From the NCBI GenBank assembly GCA_030428695.1, contig JAUIEM010000442.1:1-7453 (forward strand): DNA of 7,453 nt. The letters run 5' to 3'. Below the pieces are notes generated by a model. It was given only the letters and a program-made list of their open reading frames with translations. It ran no database searches and was not told the origin of the DNA. Positions 1,729 to 7,453 of the stretch are shown piece after piece (within the stretch, counting starts at the first letter, position 1; each line of letters opens with the position of its first letter). A program made the translations under genes and the position numbers. The DNA comes from a bacterium (GTDB lineage: Bacteria > Planctomycetota > J058 > JAJDCP01).

Positions 1729-2452
1729 GACGCCGGTGCTGTCGGTGCGCGGCCTGCGCAAGCTGTACAAGGTCGGGGTCGAGGTGATCCGCGCCCTCGA
1801 CGGCGTCGACCTCGACGTCGGGCGCAACGAATACCTCGCCGTGATGGGCTCGTCGGGCAGCGGGAAGAGCACGCTGATGAACATCCTCGGCTGCCTCGAC
1901 CGGCCGAGCGAGGGCACCTACCTGCTCGACGGCCGCGACACCACCCGGCTCGGGGCCGCCGCCCTCGCCCAGGTGCGCAACGAGCGCATCGGCTTCGTCT
2001 TCCAGTCCTTCGAGCTGCTGCCCCGGCTCAGCGCCCTCGCCAACGTCGAGCTGCCGCTAATCTACGCCGCCCACGGCTGGTGGAGCCGGCGCAAGCGGGC
2101 GCGGGAGGTGCTGACCCGGGTCGGCCTCGGCGACCGGGTGCGGCACCGGCCGAACCAGCTCTCCGGCGGCCAGAAGCAGCGGGTCGCGATCGCCCGGGCG
2201 CTGATCAACCGGCCGAGCCTGCTGCTCGCCGACGAGCCGACGGGGAACCTCGACAGCCGCACCAGCGAGGAGATCCTCGGCCTGTTCGAGGCGCTGCACG
2301 CCGAGGGGCAGACCATCGTGATCGTCACCCACGAGCCGGCGGTGGCCGCCCGCACCCGGCGGGTGATCCGGATGCTCGACGGGAAGATCATCGCCGACCG
2401 CGCCGTCGCCGATGACCCGGAGCTCGCTTCGCTGCGCGTGGAGGGCTCCTGA
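1721..2452 (+). CDS. MacB/LolD-type ABC transporter ATP-binding protein
   Basis: This 243-residue stand-alone nucleotide-binding subunit has every catalytic motif intact. The Walker A motif GSSGSGKST is at 43-51, the Q-loop glutamine is Q95 (FVFQSF), and the signature [15 protein letters not shown] is at 147-161. Walker B with the catalytic glutamate, LLLADE, is at 167-172, followed by PTGNLDS, and the switch histidine is H204 (IVTHEP). The GNLDS D-loop and the [12 protein letters not shown] stretch after Walker A are typical of the LolD/MacB/FtsE group, which powers mechanotransmission pumps rather than transport through a channel. It should sit on the cytoplasmic face as a dimer bound to the FtsX-type permease encoded immediately downstream. 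The start at 1721 overlaps the adaptor gene by 8 bp and gives the usual short N-terminus. The stop overlaps the permease start as TGATG. The length is normal for the family. Confidence 0.96.
2440..2445 (+). promoter_or_regulatory. Ribosome binding site for the permease gene
   Basis: GGAGGG lies inside the last codons of the ATPase gene, six bases before the permease ATG at 2452. It fixes that start and, with the TGATG stop/start overlap, indicates reinitiation or coupled translation of pump subunits. Confidence 0.75.
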
Positions 2453-3705
2453 TGCTGCGCGTCCTGCTGTGGCCCTTCTCGCTCTTGCGCCTGCTGTTCC
2501 TCAGCGTCTTCCTCGCCATCGGCCAGATCTGGGCGAACAAGATGCGCTCGGTGCTGACCACGGCGGGGATCGTGATCGGCGTCGCCTCGGTCACCTCGGT
2601 GATCGCGGCGCTGAGCGGGCTGCGCAGCAACGTGCTCGCCGAGTTCGAGGCGCTCGGCACCAACAAGATGTTCATCTACCCCGAGCAGCCGGAGAGCGGC
2701 GGCTTCAGCTGGCGCAGCGTGCGCTTCTGGCCCGAGCAGTTCGAGGGCCTGGCCGAGGAGTGCCCGGCGATCGACCAGCTGACCCGCATCGGCAGCTACA
2801 CCGCGACGGTCAAGGCCGAAGGACGCACGATCGCCGACGTCGACATCACCGGCATCGAGCCGAGCTGGCACGCGATCGAGAACCGCTCGGTCACGCTCGG
2901 CCGGCCCTTCTCGGTCATCGACGAGCAGCAGGCCCGGCAGGTCTGCCTGATCGACGCCGGCCTGCGCGACAAGCTGCGGCTGCGCACCGACTGCGTCGGC
3001 GAGCGGCTGCTGCTCGGGGAGCGCAGCTTCCTGATCGTCGGCCTGGTCGAGCCGAGCCAGGAGAGCTCGCGCTTCGGCGGCCGCGGCGAGACCGACCAGG
3101 TGTTCATCCCCTTCCGCACCTGCTGGAAGCTCGCCGAGCCGTGGTTCCACGTGATCGCGACCAGCGTCTCGCCGGAGCGGTCCGAGGACGCCCGCGCAGA
3201 GGCCCGGCTGTTCCTGCGCCGCACGCGCCGGCTCGGCTACGCGGACCCCGACACCTTCCGGGTCAACGTGATCGAGGAGTTCCTGCAGCGCTTCAACACC
3301 ATCGCCCTGACCATCACGATGGTCGCCGCCGGCATCGTCGGCATCTCCCTGCTGGTCGGGGGCGTCGGCATCATGAACATCATGCTGGTGTCGGTCTCCG
3401 AGCGCACCCGCGAAATCGGCCTGCGCAAGGCGGTCGGCGCCCGTCCGGCGGCGATCATGCTGCAGTTCCTGGTCGAGTCGGTGATGCTGTGCTTCGTCGG
3501 CGGCCTGATCGGGGTCGGCCTCGGCCAGCTGCTGACCCTCGGCATCGCGAACATCCCCGGCGCCGAGCTCGAGCGCGCGCCGCTCCCGGCCTGGGCGATC
3601 GCGATGGCCTTCGGCTTCGCCGCGGGGGTCGGGGTGGTGTTCGGCATGTTCCCCGCGATCAAGGCCGCGCGACTCGACCCGATCGTCGCGCTGCGCCACG
3701 AATAG
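2452..3705 (+). CDS. MacB/FtsX-type ABC transporter permease
   Basis: This 417-residue protein is the membrane subunit paired with the ATPase encoded upstream. It has the four-helix MacB/FtsX topology: TM1 at about 33-55, a large periplasmic domain at about 56-280, then TM2 (about 284-312), TM3 (about 338-366) and TM4 (about 379-400). The family signature at the cytoplasmic end of TM2 is clear ([20 protein letters not shown], 304-323, then LRKAVGA), as is the C-terminal [25 protein letters not shown] ending (397-417). The periplasmic domain carries cysteines at 104, 165, 181 and 224, which could form disulfides. The N-terminus is longer and more hydrophobic than in simple MacB permeases (residues 3-22, [19 protein letters not shown]), just ahead of the conserved [19 protein letters not shown] region. 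The gene overlaps the ATPase gene by one base. No outer-membrane channel gene is present in the window. Family membership is secure; the substrate is unknown. Confidence 0.94.
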
Positions 3706-3760
3706 GGAGCTGATGTTCTCCAAACGTTCAGTTTCCCGGCGGTCGATCAAGGCAAGAGGC

Positions 3761-3883
3761 GAAGGATGGGAGAAGAGGAAGAAAGAAAAGGAAATGAAGG
3801 AGAAAAGGAAAAAAGAAAAGAGTTTATAACGAAGACAGGAGAGGGGAGAAGGCAGGAAAAGAGAAGAGGAAAGAGTGGGAGAC
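3761..3883 (+). repeat. Polypurine tract, about 91% A+G
   Basis: Only 11 of the 123 bases are pyrimidines. Uninterrupted purine runs cover 3768-3794 (27 nt), 3796-3822 (27 nt), 3837-3852 (16 nt) and 3854-3875 (22 nt). The text is irregular GA/GAA/GGA, not a fixed-unit microsatellite. A small island, TTTATAAC (3823-3830), interrupts the middle. As DNA such a tract can adopt triplex (H-DNA) or stabilise R-loops; as RNA it would be an A/G-rich strand able to pair with the U/C-rich block that follows. Confidence 0.85.
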
Positions 3884-3998
3884 TGATCTTATTTTGGTTT
3901 TCCTCTTCCTCTCGTTTTCGGTTTTCTTCATTTCTCTCCTGCTCTTCTCTTCTTCTTCTCGTCTTTTCCTGCCTTCCTTACTTCCTGCATTCCTTATA
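3825..3998. repeat. Long imperfect inverted repeat joining the purine and pyrimidine tracts
   Basis: The core is a perfect 15-bp inverted repeat: GAAGGCAGGAAAAGA at 3848-3862 is the reverse complement of 3962-3976. Further out, 3825-3840 pairs with 3983-3998 at 13 of 16 positions, including TATAA with TTATA and CAGGA with TCCTG, on nearly the same axis (one bulged base). The mixed-sequence islands thus pair with each other, so the symmetry is more than shared purine bias. The loop of 99 bases (3863-3961) is itself partly complementary. It could be a giant terminator-like or RNase III-type RNA hairpin, or a relic of an inverted duplication. Confidence 0.6.
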
Positions 3999-4023
3999 GA
4001 TTTCTTCTCTTCGTCTTCTCTTT
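3898..4023 (+). repeat. Polypyrimidine tract, about 88% C+T
   Basis: Only 15 of the 126 bases are purines. The text is irregular TTC/CTT/TCC with no fixed unit over its length. It matches the preceding purine tract in length and has the opposite strand bias, so the two blocks can act as arms of a very large imperfect hairpin. It ends about 40 bases before the start codon of the dioxygenase-like gene and may therefore form much of that gene's 5' leader if transcription starts inside or before it. Confidence 0.85.
3968..3996. repeat. Two-copy 13-bp tandem repeat, period 16
   Basis: CCTGCCTTCCTTA (3968-3980) recurs as CCTGCATTCCTTA (3984-3996) with one mismatch. The first copy overlaps the right arm of the 15-bp inverted repeat, so this sequence is present twice directly and once inverted (around 3848-3856). 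That suggests the tract grew by local duplication. Confidence 0.6.
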
Positions 4024-4055
4024 GGGTCGAGCTGGGCTGGGTTGGTTCAACTTAT

Positions 4056-4061
4056 GGAGGG
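4056..4061 (+). promoter_or_regulatory. Ribosome binding site deciding the start of the dioxygenase-like gene
   Basis: GGAGGG ends four bases before ATG 4066. The two earlier in-frame candidates, TTG 4042 and ATG 4054, lie upstream of or overlap this site and have no purine-rich site of their own at good spacing, so 4066 is preferred. Confidence 0.7.
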
Positions 4062-4065
4062 AACG

Positions 4066-4464
4066 ATGACGGATCCCGCCGCGTGGGTCGTCGATGGCTA
4101 CGACGTCCACCTGCTGTTCGAAAAGCACGAGGAGGAAGCCGCCCGCGCGCTGTTCCGGAGCTTCCTCCACTACGTCGAGGCCGAGCAGATCCCCTACGAG
4201 CGCGGGATCGTCTTCCCCGCGCCGGTCGGCCCCTGGCCGACGCCGATGTGGCAGATCCTGCTGCGGAGGAAGGAGCGGACGCTGCTCGAGCGCGACCTCG
4301 GGCGCTGCATCGCCTGGATGATGCTCAACCGCGGCAGCTTCTCCGCGATGGTCCACCCGAACACCCGCGAGGAAGCGGGCATCGGCGGCGGTCTGCGCGA
4401 CCACCGGGACTACTGCCTGTGGCTGGGGGAACCGCGTCGGCTGCGGCTCGGGATCTTCGGGTAG
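4066..4464 (+). CDS. DOPA 4,5-dioxygenase family protein (small extradiol-type ring-cleavage enzyme)
   Basis: This 132-residue protein resembles the DOPA 4,5-dioxygenase family (Pfam DOPA_dioxygen), small proteins of roughly 100-130 residues; characterised members cleave catechol-type rings extradiol-wise. Family-like features in order are GYDVHLLFE at 11-19 with H15, PVGPWPTPMWQI at 53-64, and MMLNRGSFSAMVHPNT at 85-100 with H97. The C-terminal DHRDYCLWLGEPRRL (112-126) has H113. H15, H97 and H113 are plausible metal or substrate ligands. From memory, many relatives have GPH where this protein has GPW (55-57), and a histidine a few residues after the DH where this one has Tyr116; both could affect activity. 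It also has a short Gly-rich insert (105-109) between HPNT and DH. No signal peptide is seen, so it should be cytoplasmic. No aromatic-pathway gene adjoins it. The stop is 14 bp from that of the convergent YfhO-family gene. Family call is good; the actual substrate is unknown. Confidence 0.82.
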   Translation: MTDPAAWVVDGYDVHLLFEKHEEEAARALFRSFLHYVEAEQIPYERGIVFPAPVGPWPTPMWQILLRRKERTLLERDLGRCIAWMMLNRGSFSAMVHPNTREEAGIGGGLRDHRDYCLWLGEPRRLRLGIFG

Positions 4465-4485
4465 GGCTCGCGGAGGCTCTACCCG
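4458..4485. terminator. Shared hairpin at convergent gene ends (candidate bidirectional terminator)
   Basis: CGGGTAGGGCT (4458-4468) pairs with GGCTCTACCCG (4475-4485) around a six-base loop: 11 bp, including two G-T (G-U in RNA) wobbles. It spans both stop codons: TAG of the dioxygenase-like gene (4462-4464) pairs base for base with CTA (4479-4481), the stop of the minus-strand gene. Its position between convergent genes fits a bidirectional terminator. No T-run follows on either strand, so termination would have to be stem-driven or rho-assisted, or the hairpin may instead protect transcript 3' ends. Confidence 0.55.
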
Positions 4486-7453
4486 CCCGCCGCGGCCCCC
4501 TCCTCCGCCGTCTCCCCGACCGCCTGGCGTCGCTTCCACCACAGGAACAGCCCGCCGAGGAACAGCGCCCACCAGACCAGCGAGGACACCGTCGACAGCA
4601 GCTGGCCGCGCTGGTAGCTGCCCTGGTCGTAGCGCCACTCGACCTGGTGCTCGCCCGGCTCGAGGACGACGCCGCGCAGCAGGTAGTTGACGACCAGGTC
4701 GTCGCGGGGTTCGCCGTCGACGAACAGCTGCCAGGCCGGGTAGGTGATCTCGCTGAGCACGAGCAGCGCGCGCCGGTCGTTCTTCACCGTCAGGGCGGTG
4801 CGGTAGGGCTCGTAGGCGTCGATGCGGATGCCGCCCTCGACGGGACCGGCCGGGAGCGTGCCGATGTCCTGCTGGACGATCGCGTGGGTGTGCGGATCGA
4901 GGCCGATCAACATGTCGCGGGCCTGCTTGTCGCTCTTCGCCTGCAGCACCTGCGAGGCGAACCAGGCGCGGGGCAGCGCGTCCTTGTTCTCGTAGATGTG
5001 GACGCGGGCGACGGCGTCGCGGCGCACCCAGCCGGTGTCGGCGATGCCGGAGGTGCGGCGGGTCGCGATCTTGATCTGGTTCTCGCGCTGGTCGAGCAGG
5101 GCGACGCTCAGGCGCGGCGCGAGCCGCAGCTGCTCGCCGCGCTGGTTGGTCATCGTCAGGGCATCGGGGTAGGGCCAGACGATCTGGATGTCCTCGAACA
5201 CCAGCTCGGTGTCGAAGCCCCGCGGCGGGCTGCCGCCGACCGAGCGCACGTAGCGCGCGTTCAGCATGTTCGGCAGGGCGGGGAAGCGCTCGTAGGCGTG
5301 GGGATTGTCCGCGACCAGATCGCGGACGTTCTGGTAGCGGCGCAGCTTGAAGGGGCTGTAGCCCTCGATGCTCTCCAGCCCGCAGCCGGGGAAGTAGTTC
5401 GGGTCCTCGTAGCCGAGATACGGCCACAGGCGGAAGGGCTCGAACGGCGCCTCGCTGCGCTGCTGGGAGACCAGGAAGGCCATGTCCCGCGGCAGCTCGC
5501 CCGGAGAGACCTGGATCAGGTTGTTCTGCGGCGGGTCGGCGAGCACCACGACGTTGGCGCGCTGGAAGTCGTTGAACACCAGCAGGGCGCAGACCAGCCC
5601 GAAGCCGATGCCGACGCCCGTCGCGCTGGCCGCGCCGAGGGTCGAGGCGATGAAGCAGGCGCCGAGGATCGCGAGCAGCGTGCCGAAGGCGTAGAGCAGC
5701 GAGCGGTTGAGGTCCTCCGCGGCGCGCTGGGCGGCCTCCTTCGCCTCCGGGAGGAAGTAGGCGAACAGCGCGTCGGCGGCCATCTCCTGGTCGCCGCCCT
5801 CGGTCGGGACGATGAGCTTCGTCGCCCGCATCTCCCGCTGCACCGACACGTCGATGGTCGTGAAGCTGTCCGCGGCGAAGACCACATCCCCCCAACCTCC
5901 GAGCTTGTCCCGCACTTCGGCGTAGACGCGCGCGTCGCGCTCGGCGAAGTCGCCGACCTTGCGGGCGAGGTACTGCGAGCCGGCCATCTGCGAGAGGCCG
6001 CCGGCCGCGCCGAAGACGATCCAGAAGAGGCCGACGACCCCCATCCCGATCAGCGCCCCCCGCACCACCCGCTGCCGCTTCTCGGGCTGCGCGAGCACGC
6101 TGACGACGTGATGCCCGCCGAGGGCGGCGAGCACCGCGACGCTGAAGCTCGTCGCGTAGAGCGCCATCGAGGGCACGCGGATGCGGTTGAAGAACGGGAG
6201 GTACTCGTACAGGAGCCCGTACGGACCCCAGGCCCAGAAGCGCCCGAAGGAGACCAGCACCGCGAAGATGCCGGCGACCGCCAGGGCGACCGCGAGCACC
6301 CGGTAGGGCCGGACGAACGCGAAGCAGGCGAGCACGAGCGCGACCACCCCGAGGTAGTGCGGGGCCTGGGTGAAGCGCATCCAGCCGAAGTAGTCGACCG
6401 CGTTCGAGAAGCCGAAGGCCTCCGGCACAGCGAAGGTCATCGCCTCTTCGGGATGCAGGGACCAGTTCGTCGCGTAGGTCCAGTCGAGGGCGGCGCCCTT
6501 CGGCTCCTCGACCTGCTCCTGCGGTGCCGGGAGAGGTCCCTGGCCGCGGATGGAGTGGGGCGTGTAGTCGGTGATCGGCTGCCAGTGGAAGGCGGTCATC
6601 AGGAGCGCGAGCAGCGACGCGAGAGCGAACGCGAGCCCGGTCTTGCCGATCTTCGCCCAGGCCCCTTCGAGACCCTGCCGCACCGCCCAGATCAGCAGGC
6701 AGAACACCGTCACGGCGACGCCGTACAGGGCCATCTGCGGGTGGAGCTGGAGGATCATCAGGTAGGCGATGTAGCTGAAGGCCGCGAAGCGCAGCAGGCC
6801 GCCCTTCTTCGCGAGCTCGAGGGCGAACACGAAGAGCACGGGAAACAGGGCGTAGGAGTAGAGCTTCGAGCCGTGGGCGGCCGGCCCGAGCACCGTCACC
6901 GCGGGCTGCAGCACGAAGATCAGCGCCGCCGCCAGGGCGGGCGCGACCCCGAGCTTCAGGGACATGCACAGATAGAGCAGGCAGATCCCACCGAGGAAGA
7001 AGCCGAAGGTGTAGTAGTTGCCGAGGTCGAACAGCGGCCGCGTGAGGCGCCGCAGCGCGCCGAGGGAGGTGTTGAACTTGTGGTAGAACATCGCCGGCCC
7101 GTAGGGCATGCCGCTGAAGATGCGGCGGGACCACTGCAGGGTCTCGCCGGTCTCGCGGTAGTGCGCCGCGCCCTCCTGGGTGACGTTGTGCACGCTCTCG
7201 CTGTCGCCGGCCTGCACGAAGGAGGCCGGCTGGATCGCGACGACGATCGCGGCGATCGCGAGCACGGCGCCGGCGATGGCGAGCCAACGGTTGCGGCCCT
7301 GCAGCAGCGTCCGGGACGCCGAGGTCCCCGTCGGCGCGCCGGCGGGAGGCTTGCCGGCCGCGGACTGCGCCGCCGCTGGGCTCGCCGCGGCCGCCTCGGC
7401 GGGCGCGGCAGGGGCCTGCTTCGCGGGCCCGGACTCCGGCGCGGCGGGCTTCG
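4479..7453 (-). CDS. YfhO-family polytopic membrane protein (GT-C-like), N-terminus beyond the window
   Basis: The minus-strand frame is open from the right edge to the stop at 4479-4481, giving 990 visible residues. Counting from the first whole codon, residues 1-50 are an Ala/Pro/Gly/Ser-rich, probably disordered cytoplasmic segment. TM1 is at about 56-76, followed by an extracytoplasmic loop and many further membrane segments to about residue 630. A soluble C-terminal domain ends in a last membrane helix (about 955-972) and a short KRRQ tail. Family-like motifs are HGSKLYSYALFPVLF (193-207), LHPQMALYG (236-244), PFFNRIRVPSMAL (419-431), HIYENKDALPRAW (818-830), YPAWQLFVDG (904-913) and RGVVLEPGEH (926-935). 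YfhO proteins are predicted GT-C-fold enzymes; in Bacillus the family is linked to glycosylation of lipoteichoic acid. A similar envelope-glycan role here is inference. The first in-frame start-like codon in view, GTG 7265, falls inside TM1, so it is not taken as the start. The 3' end faces the dioxygenase-like gene. Confidence 0.85.
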   Translation of the reverse strand, partial: KPAAPESGPAKQAPAAPAEAAAASPAAAQSAAGKPPAGAPTGTSASRTLLQGRNRWLAIAGAVLAIAAIVVAIQPASFVQAGDSESVHNVTQEGAAHYRETGETLQWSRRIFSGMPYGPAMFYHKFNTSLGALRRLTRPLFDLGNYYTFGFFLGGICLLYLCMSLKLGVAPALAAALIFVLQPAVTVLGPAAHGSKLYSYALFPVLFVFALELAKKGGLLRFAAFSYIAYLMILQLHPQMALYGVAVTVFCLLIWAVRQGLEGAWAKIGKTGLAFALASLLALLMTAFHWQPITDYTPHSIRGQGPLPAPQEQVEEPKGAALDWTYATNWSLHPEEAMTFAVPEAFGFSNAVDYFGWMRFTQAPHYLGVVALVLACFAFVRPYRVLAVALAVAGIFAVLVSFGRFWAWGPYGLLYEYLPFFNRIRVPSMALYATSFSVAVLAALGGHHVVSVLAQPEKRQRVVRGALIGMGVVGLFWIVFGAAGGLSQMAGSQYLARKVGDFAERDARVYAEVRDKLGGWGDVVFAADSFTTIDVSVQREMRATKLIVPTEGGDQEMAADALFAYFLPEAKEAAQRAAEDLNRSLLYAFGTLLAILGACFIASTLGAASATGVGIGFGLVCALLVFNDFQRANVVVLADPPQNNLIQVSPGELPRDMAFLVSQQRSEAPFEPFRLWPYLGYEDPNYFPGCGLESIEGYSPFKLRRYQNVRDLVADNPHAYERFPALPNMLNARYVRSVGGSPPRGFDTELVFEDIQIVWPYPDALTMTNQRGEQLRLAPRLSVALLDQRENQIKIATRRTSGIADTGWVRRDAVARVHIYENKDALPRAWFASQVLQAKSDKQARDMLIGLDPHTHAIVQQDIGTLPAGPVEGGIRIDAYEPYRTALTVKNDRRALLVLSEITYPAWQLFVDGEPRDDLVVNYLLRGVVLEPGEHQVEWRYDQGSYQRGQLLSTVSSLVWWALFLGGLFLWWKRRQAVGETAEEGAAAGG

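What the first reader, a model, noticed from the sequence alone, without database searches (positions are those of the whole stretch)
3761..4023. Matched polypurine and polypyrimidine blocks back to back in a GC-rich genome
About 123 nt at 91% purine is followed, after a 14-nt transition, by about 126 nt at 88% pyrimidine on the same strand. The blocks are nearly equal in length and lie precisely between two ordinary GC-rich genes. They are not a fixed-unit microsatellite and code for nothing recognisable. An abrupt strand switch of this size is unusual. It could be an H-DNA/R-loop-forming element, a transcription or replication barrier insulating the pump operon from the next gene, a duplex-forming RNA, or a mobile intergenic repeat.
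Basis: partly seen in the sequence, partly recalled or inferred. Interest (0 to 1): 0.72.

Follow-up and report, generated by a model that had tools for sequence, protein, structure and literature searches.

The report
Back-to-back purine and pyrimidine intergenic block
Between two genes of a very GC-rich, uncultured planctomycete-like bacterium lies a 275-base stretch that is nearly all purine and then nearly all pyrimidine, perhaps an outsized two-way stop signal for transcription, although a harmless leftover of a folded-back duplication is almost as likely.

Summary
Bases 3749-3882 are 91% purine, 3898-4023 are 88% pyrimidine, in a 70% GC contig (GC3 0.94-0.98), in the gap between a MacB-type pump operon and a DOPA-dioxygenase-like gene. 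Chance is excluded. No mirror symmetry, so not H-DNA-like. The blocks are linked: 3823-3871 and 3953-4000 form a degenerate inverted repeat (1 of 5000 dinucleotide shuffles with composition-aware scoring; only 104-237 of 2000 with plain scoring), but the RNA folds no better than block-wise shuffles. Purine-then-pyrimidine reads the same on both strands, so each strand's transcript ends in a G-poor pyrimidine stretch: the weakest RNA:DNA hybrid and the highest C/G (5.6 and 14) of the contig. I favour a two-way, Rho-type terminator/insulator (0.42), with a neutral fold-back relic close behind. In 3.06 Mb of relatives nothing this large was found (junction score at most 26, against 83), but long inverted repeats there more often have purine-rich left arms (25 against 2), and one smaller look-alike was found. 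No transcripts, close relative or own genome were available.

The parts
3749..3882 (.). Purine block (R block): 134 nt, 91% purine, GC 0.43; read on the minus strand it is the C-rich, G-poor second half of the element
   Evidence: best 78-nt minus-strand C/G = 14 (window starting at 3775 on plus)
3883..3897 (.). 15-nt transition between the blocks
3898..4023 (.). Pyrimidine block (Y block): 126 nt, 88% pyrimidine, GC 0.40; on the plus strand a C-rich, G-poor stretch
   Evidence: best 78-nt plus-strand C/G = 5.6 at 3935; weakest 100-step hybrid mean of the plus strand at 3880-3987
3823..3871 (+). Left arm of a degenerate inverted repeat inside the R block
   Evidence: composition-aware local alignment 22.5 against 12.3 +/- 1.9 in dinucleotide shuffles, 1 of 5000; 37 of 49 columns identical; core 3848-3871 found also by the repeat finder
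3953..4000 (-). Right arm of the same inverted repeat, inside the Y block
2452..3705 (+). MacB-type ABC permease (MacB_PCD + FtsX), last gene of the pump operon upstream
   Evidence: PF12704, PF02687
4066..4464 (+). DOPA 4,5-dioxygenase-like gene downstream, ATG at 4066 with ggaggg just before it
   Evidence: PF08883

Best explanation
The tract is a strand-symmetric transcription stop (terminator and insulator) between the pump operon and the next gene. A purine block followed by a pyrimidine block reads purine-then-pyrimidine on both strands, so polymerase coming from either side first makes purine-rich RNA and then 125-135 nt of pyrimidine-rich, G-poor RNA. In that second half the RNA:DNA hybrid is at its weakest and the transcript offers a long G-poor landing place for Rho. 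Rho (or hybrid collapse helped by pairing of the new pyrimidine RNA with the purine RNA just made) would release read-through from the pump operon on the plus strand and antisense transcription from the convergent yfhO-like gene on the minus strand. Shown here: location, composition, symmetry, C/G extremes, hybrid weakness (computed with recalled parameters), a degenerate inverted repeat, Rho genes in related genomes. Inferred: termination itself, its direction, and Rho's part in it.
For: C/G in the best 78-nt window is 5.6 (plus, Y block) and 14 (minus, R block), against maxima of 2.59 and 2.47 in the rest of the contig. In 5,467,016 78-nt windows of relatives (both strands; 196 of 220 loci, the 24 loci with N left out) C/G of at least 4.4 is reached by 2347 (0.043%) and of at least 9 by 215 (0.004%). 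With a C every 11-13 nt required as well, windows with C/G of 3 or more (63 plus, 93 minus) all start within 3623-4070. Mean 9-bp hybrid energy is weakest here on both strands (-8.6 and -8.2 kcal/mol against medians of -14.3 and -14.2). It sits between a gene end and a gene start. The blocks are related by an inverted repeat. All 18 related genomes searched match the Rho family model, 15 above its curated cut-off. Long inverted repeats (arms of 28 nt or more) in relatives prefer purine-rich left arms, 25 against 2, as two-way terminators would. In PMC12350095 (passages read) Rut sites share pyrimidine-rich motifs, and pairs of Rut sites on opposite strands are described, with significance still to be determined.
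Against: No transcript or term-seq data. C/G above 1 with spaced C is met by 2876 of 7376 plus-strand and 3208 of 7376 minus-strand windows in this contig, so the rut criterion itself is weak; only the extreme ratio is special, and PMC6407284 (passages read) reports no strong correlation of C/G with the RNA-seq measure of termination. The Y block is richer in T (55%) than C (33%). If the arms pair, the rut stretch would be hidden from Rho. The RNA fold is no better than block-wise shuffles. The terminator scan found no canonical terminator, nor a promoter for the next gene. The purine-left preference is weak at stricter purity (11 against 5 at 70%/30%, p 0.21, arms of 20 nt or more) and absent in L001-L080 alone (12 against 9). 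In PMC12350095 about 80% of such tandem Rut pairs showed no transcription change in a rho mutant.
Confidence: 0.42

Rival explanations
1. Neutral relic: an inverted (fold-back) duplication of a purine-rich low-complexity sequence, enlarged by replication slippage and local duplications, tolerated because it lies in an intergenic gap. No function.
For: Degenerate inverted repeat 3823-3871/3953-4000; weak tandem arrays of periods 5-24 in the tract; excess self-match at lags 8 and 16 in the Y block (z 3.5 and 2.9); no element of the same size in 220 loci, 3,056,923 bases, of relatives; several purine-left inverted repeats listed for relatives are visibly made of degenerate short units.
Against: GC of 0.40-0.43 is far from the composition of a genome with GC3 near 0.97, so a neutral tract would have to be young (inference), yet its arms are already down to 76% identity (37 of 49 columns). 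Block lengths are nearly equal, and purity of both blocks is kept although exact pairing is not.
Confidence: 0.35
2. A regulatory leader or small RNA: the tract is transcribed with the DOPA-dioxygenase-like gene (or as a 3' UTR of the pump mRNA) and controls stability or translation through purine/pyrimidine pairing.
For: It lies just upstream of a Shine-Dalgarno-like ggaggg and ATG at 4066; R and Y RNA can pair extensively.
Against: No promoter-like site in 3600-4200, no Rfam match, fold energy not better than block-wise shuffles, no conserved relative in hand to test covariation.
Confidence: 0.1
3. A copy of a mobile or dispersed intergenic repeat family, such as a miniature inverted-repeat element.
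For: Inverted-repeat character. Two genomes of the sampled class carry recognisably similar purine-rich inverted repeats (L224 8487-8571 and L229 4897-4986; similarity judged by eye), so some such repeats may spread.
Against: No match in the phage or plasmid collections (the low-complexity filter may have masked the query). I saw no target-site duplication or defined ends, by eye only. Own genome not held, so copy number is unknown.
Confidence: 0.09
4. An H-DNA (triplex) forming tract that stalls replication or transcription.
For: Long R.Y tracts can form triplexes; PMC4060949 (passages read) states that H-DNA forms in such tracts when they have mirror symmetry.
Against: No mirror symmetry above shuffles in either block (624 of 1000 and 273 of 1000 shuffles reach the observed score).
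Confidence: 0.04

Closest known systems
Bidirectional tandem Rut pairs / Rho-dependent terminators (B. subtilis, E. coli; passages of PMC12350095 and PMC6407284)
   Same: Pyrimidine-rich or C-over-G stretches of at least 78 nt, on opposite strands close to each other; Rho family present in related genomes.
   Different: Known from Helicase-SELEX on model species, not from this lineage; here the two stretches abut, have an extreme C/G and are related as an inverted repeat. Rho binding is untested.
Bidirectional intrinsic terminators (A-tract, hairpin, U-tract; passages of PMC12207403)
   Same: Purine-left/pyrimidine-right order on both strands, inverted-repeat relation, intergenic.
   Different: About 275 nt instead of the stem-loop limit of 59 nt used in that paper, no short GC-rich hairpin followed by a T run, G and C mixed into both blocks.
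Intrastrand triplex motifs of bacteria (passages of PMC4666352)
   Same: Polypurine and polypyrimidine units along one strand; the E. coli motif TMECO is always intergenic.
   Different: Those are short three-part motifs with a strong consensus; here two long degenerate blocks. A triplex motif was not searched for.
L248 18092-18328, between a DUF3467 gene and an MFS gene of a related genome
   Same: Both genes on one strand; purine left flank (60 nt, 83% purine), pyrimidine right flank (50 nt, 12% purine), 32-nt inverted arms at 88%.
   Different: Shorter blocks separated by a 127-nt mixed stretch; C/G only 2.55 and 2.88. The left flank is intergenic only if the MFS gene starts at its second ATG (18078) rather than at 18159 (the MFS domain begins at residue 77 of the longer frame).

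Membership tests
Rho-dependent terminator, two-way (Rut pair) | 78-nt stretch with C/G above 1 and C every 11-13 nt, on both strands | tested here: met
   C/G 5.6 plus, 14 minus; but C/G above 1 with spaced C is common in this contig
Rho-dependent terminator, two-way (Rut pair) | Unstructured, Rho-bound RNA and Rho-dependent loss of read-through | not testable with these tools
   needs H-SELEX, term-seq or bicyclomycin experiments
Rho-dependent terminator, two-way (Rut pair) | Downstream polymerase pause site within 150 nt | not tested
   no pause-site scan was run
Canonical intrinsic terminator | Short GC-rich stem-loop followed by a run of T | tested here: not met
   0 sites in 3600-4200 on either strand (shuffles: mean 1.1)
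H-DNA forming tract | Mirror symmetry within a purine/pyrimidine tract | tested here: not met
Tandem short-repeat (microsatellite/STRR-like) array | Fixed repeat unit | tested here: not met
   only short weak arrays of differing period; lag 8 and 16 signals in Y only
Dispersed mobile repeat | Several copies in the genome | not testable with these tools
   own genome not held
Long RNA hairpin selected for pairing | Fold better than shuffles that keep block composition | tested here: not met
   43 of 150 (plus) and 32 of 150 (minus) shuffles fold at least as well

The most novel reading that the evidence does not exclude
Very GC-rich Phycisphaerae-like bacteria use purine/pyrimidine switch elements, selected for R/Y order rather than sequence, as two-way transcription stops: the same gap silences read-through on one strand and antisense RNA on the other, because each strand ends in a weak rY:dR hybrid that is also an extreme Rho loading site. 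The preference for purine-left inverted repeats in their genomes would be the genome-wide footprint of this.
Probability: 0.2. Interest if true: 0.65.

Novelty: new variant of a known kind. Interest (0 to 1): 0.42.

Why it matters
How very GC-rich genomes end transcripts is poorly covered by the canonical model: PMC12207403 (passages) reports that only 4-6.6% of 3' ends in Streptomyces met the criteria for intrinsic termination. Pairs of Rut sites on opposite strands have no assigned function (PMC12350095). An element in which both strands carry an extreme pyrimidine stretch back to back would be a clean, clonable test of whether such pairs work as two-way stops.

Tried and rejected
H-DNA: rejected for lack of mirror symmetry. 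Protein-coding low-complexity tail: rejected; the permease ends before the tract, whereas several purine or pyrimidine tracts found in relatives (L010, L050, L090, L099, L108) look like charged protein segments and are not analogues (judged by eye, not by gene calls). Assembly chimera: not supported by codon usage; read coverage not checkable. Orthologous gap in relatives: tblastn (E 1e-4) found no DOPA-dioxygenase in the 111 loci then held (L001-L111; some are short), so gene order is not seen to be conserved and the gap has no ortholog in hand. One 79% protein (P0062) is on a 114-kb contig whose DNA I could not reach: (the same 38 genomes, as it turned out) had no match at E 1e-165, and one search found none in viral contigs. 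Plain match/mismatch scoring of the arms gave a weak signal (over four schemes, 104-237 of 2000 dinucleotide and 7-53 of 2000 mononucleotide shuffles reach the observed score); the strong signal appeared only with composition-aware scoring chosen after I had seen the match by eye, so its p-value is optimistic. The whole-sequence fold z of -2.1 is a weaker control than the block-wise shuffles, which give no signal. E. coli control for inverted-repeat orientation: 4 inverted repeats in 150 kb, too few to say anything. Paper searches, titles and abstract openings seen: polypurine with Planctomycet (4 papers), polypurine/polypyrimidine/intergenic/bacterial genome, two-way Rho terminators, rut sites, degenerate heptamer repeats (none), bidirectional terminators, STRR, Planctomycetes intergenic repeats (none), hybrid strand bias; none of these listings named an element of this form. 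No paper was read whole; passages only of PMC4060949, PMC4666352, PMC12350095, PMC6407284 and PMC12207403.

Full report
What is there. The window is a complete 7453-bp contig (the protein search lists its permease on a longest contig of that length), 69.5% GC. It holds a three-gene export pump operon on the plus strand (membrane-fusion protein, ABC ATPase 1721-2452, MacB-type permease 2452-3705), a DOPA 4,5-dioxygenase-like gene (4066-4464, plus) and a large YfhO-like membrane protein on the minus strand (ending at 4479). No genome is held for it.

The tract. Between the permease stop at 3705 and the ATG at 4066, bases 3749-3882 are 91% purine and bases 3898-4023 are 88% pyrimidine, with GC 0.43 and 0.40. 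Both are far beyond chance: in 200 Markov-3 contigs no segment scored above 20, against 86 and 66.

Relation of the two blocks. Purine-then-pyrimidine is its own reverse complement in the R/Y alphabet. To see whether more than composition links the arms, I aligned the R block with the reverse complement of the Y block. With plain scoring the excess is slight (46 against 35 +/- 5.7 in dinucleotide shuffles, 104 of 2000 reach it; three other schemes 135-237 of 2000). With scores that weigh rare letters, a 49-column alignment (37 identical) of 3823-3871 with 3953-4000 scores 22.5 against 12.3 +/- 1.9 (1 of 5000 dinucleotide shuffles, 3 of 5000 mononucleotide shuffles); the unreversed complement of Y, as control, scores 12.7. 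The interruptions of the blocks match each other (TATAA, CAGGA, GGCAGG). I had seen this match by eye before choosing the scoring, so the p-value is optimistic, but a degenerate inverted repeat is the best reading. The RNA can fold along the whole tract (-102.6 kcal/mol), yet 43 of 150 (plus) and 32 of 150 (minus) shuffles that keep each block's dinucleotides fold as well. So pairing follows from composition, and selection for a particular hairpin is not shown.

What the composition does. On each strand the second half of the element is a G-poor pyrimidine stretch. The best 78-nt C/G is 5.6 on plus (start 3935) and 14 on minus (window starting at 3775); elsewhere in the contig the maxima are 2.59 and 2.47. 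With a C every 11-13 nt required too, the windows with C/G of 3 or more (63 on plus, 93 on minus) all start within 3623-4070. Among 5,467,016 78-nt windows of relatives (both strands, 196 of 220 loci; 24 loci with N, 308,323 bases, were left out), 2347 (0.043%) reach 4.4 and 215 (0.004%) reach 9. The mean 9-bp RNA:DNA hybrid, computed with recalled nearest-neighbour energies, is weakest at 3880-3987 on plus (-8.6) and 3771-3878 on minus (-8.2), against medians of about -14.2. Rho matched in 18 of 18 related genomes, 15 above the family cut-off. Rut sites share pyrimidine-rich motifs, and two-way Rut pairs exist without an assigned function; about 80% of them showed no transcription change without rho (PMC12350095, passages). 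This is the basis for the favoured reading, a two-way terminator and insulator. It is inference: no transcript was measured, and C/G is a weak predictor of termination (PMC6407284, passages).

Relatives. Purine-then-pyrimidine junctions exceed the opposite order at high scores (at least 10: 264 against 240; at least 14: 28 against 11; at least 16: 9 against 1), but the largest scores 26 against 83 in the window. So an element of this size is not a general feature of the sampled genomes; none of them is known to be a close relative. Among 267 inverted repeats (arms of at least 20 nt, at least 80% complementary, at most 250 nt apart) left arms of at least 60% purine outnumber left arms of at most 40% purine 64 to 31; at arms of 24 nt or more 35 to 8; at 28 nt or more 25 to 2 (two-sided binomial 6e-6). 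At 70%/30% it is 11 to 5 (p 0.21). The bias sits in L116-L255 (23 to 2 at 28 nt, in 19 and 2 loci); L001-L080 alone shows 12 to 9 at 20 nt (p 0.66) and 2 to 0 at 28 nt. Thresholds were chosen after a first look, and these repeats were not classed as intergenic or coding. The closest analogue is L248 18092-18328, between a DUF3467 gene (18342-18701, minus) and an MFS gene (minus), with a left flank of 83% purine, a right flank of 12% purine and 32-nt arms at 88%. Its right flank is intergenic; its left flank is so if the MFS gene starts at its second ATG (18078), and falls in the first codons of the longest frame (start 18159) otherwise.

Verdict. A real, extreme and well-placed compositional element, most likely a variant of two-way (Rho-type) termination signals, with a neutral fold-back relic almost as likely. 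H-DNA is not supported. The wider preference for purine-left inverted repeats in the sampled genomes is a lead that deserves a proper genome-wide test with gene annotation.

Noticed in passing
L224 8487-8571 and L229 4897-4986: Two different genomes of the sampled class carry, by eye, similar inverted repeats (right arms reading ...tctcaggaactc[t/c]gtgtcgga...), which suggests a dispersed repeat family with arms of the cacagag/cacggag low-complexity type.
   Followed up: no
L128 9482-9714; L171 12508-12621; L054 5108-5217; L032 451-553; L037 5925-6014; L185 6688-6790: Inverted repeats made of degenerate short tandem units (cacagag, gaaggcac, gcaaaggc, ggagttcggagggc, gggagta types) with the purine-rich arm on the left.
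   Followed up: partly
L211 about 750-900 and L212 1-60: Octamer minisatellites (gcgaaggg and cccctctg types) in two related chromosomes.
   Followed up: no
window 4479-7265 (minus): YfhO-like protein of 928 aa that no Pfam or NCBIfam model reached at E 0.001; the protein search found one relative over the full length (54%) and otherwise matches covering under half of it, many annotated with the YfhO domain.
   Followed up: partly
18 genomes: Each of the 18 genomes has a shorter Rho-like match that begins at model position 42-51 and stays below the family cut-off (about 360-480 bits); in three (G545, G677, G710) it is the best match. A second Rho-like protein in this lineage may bear on termination.
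   Followed up: no
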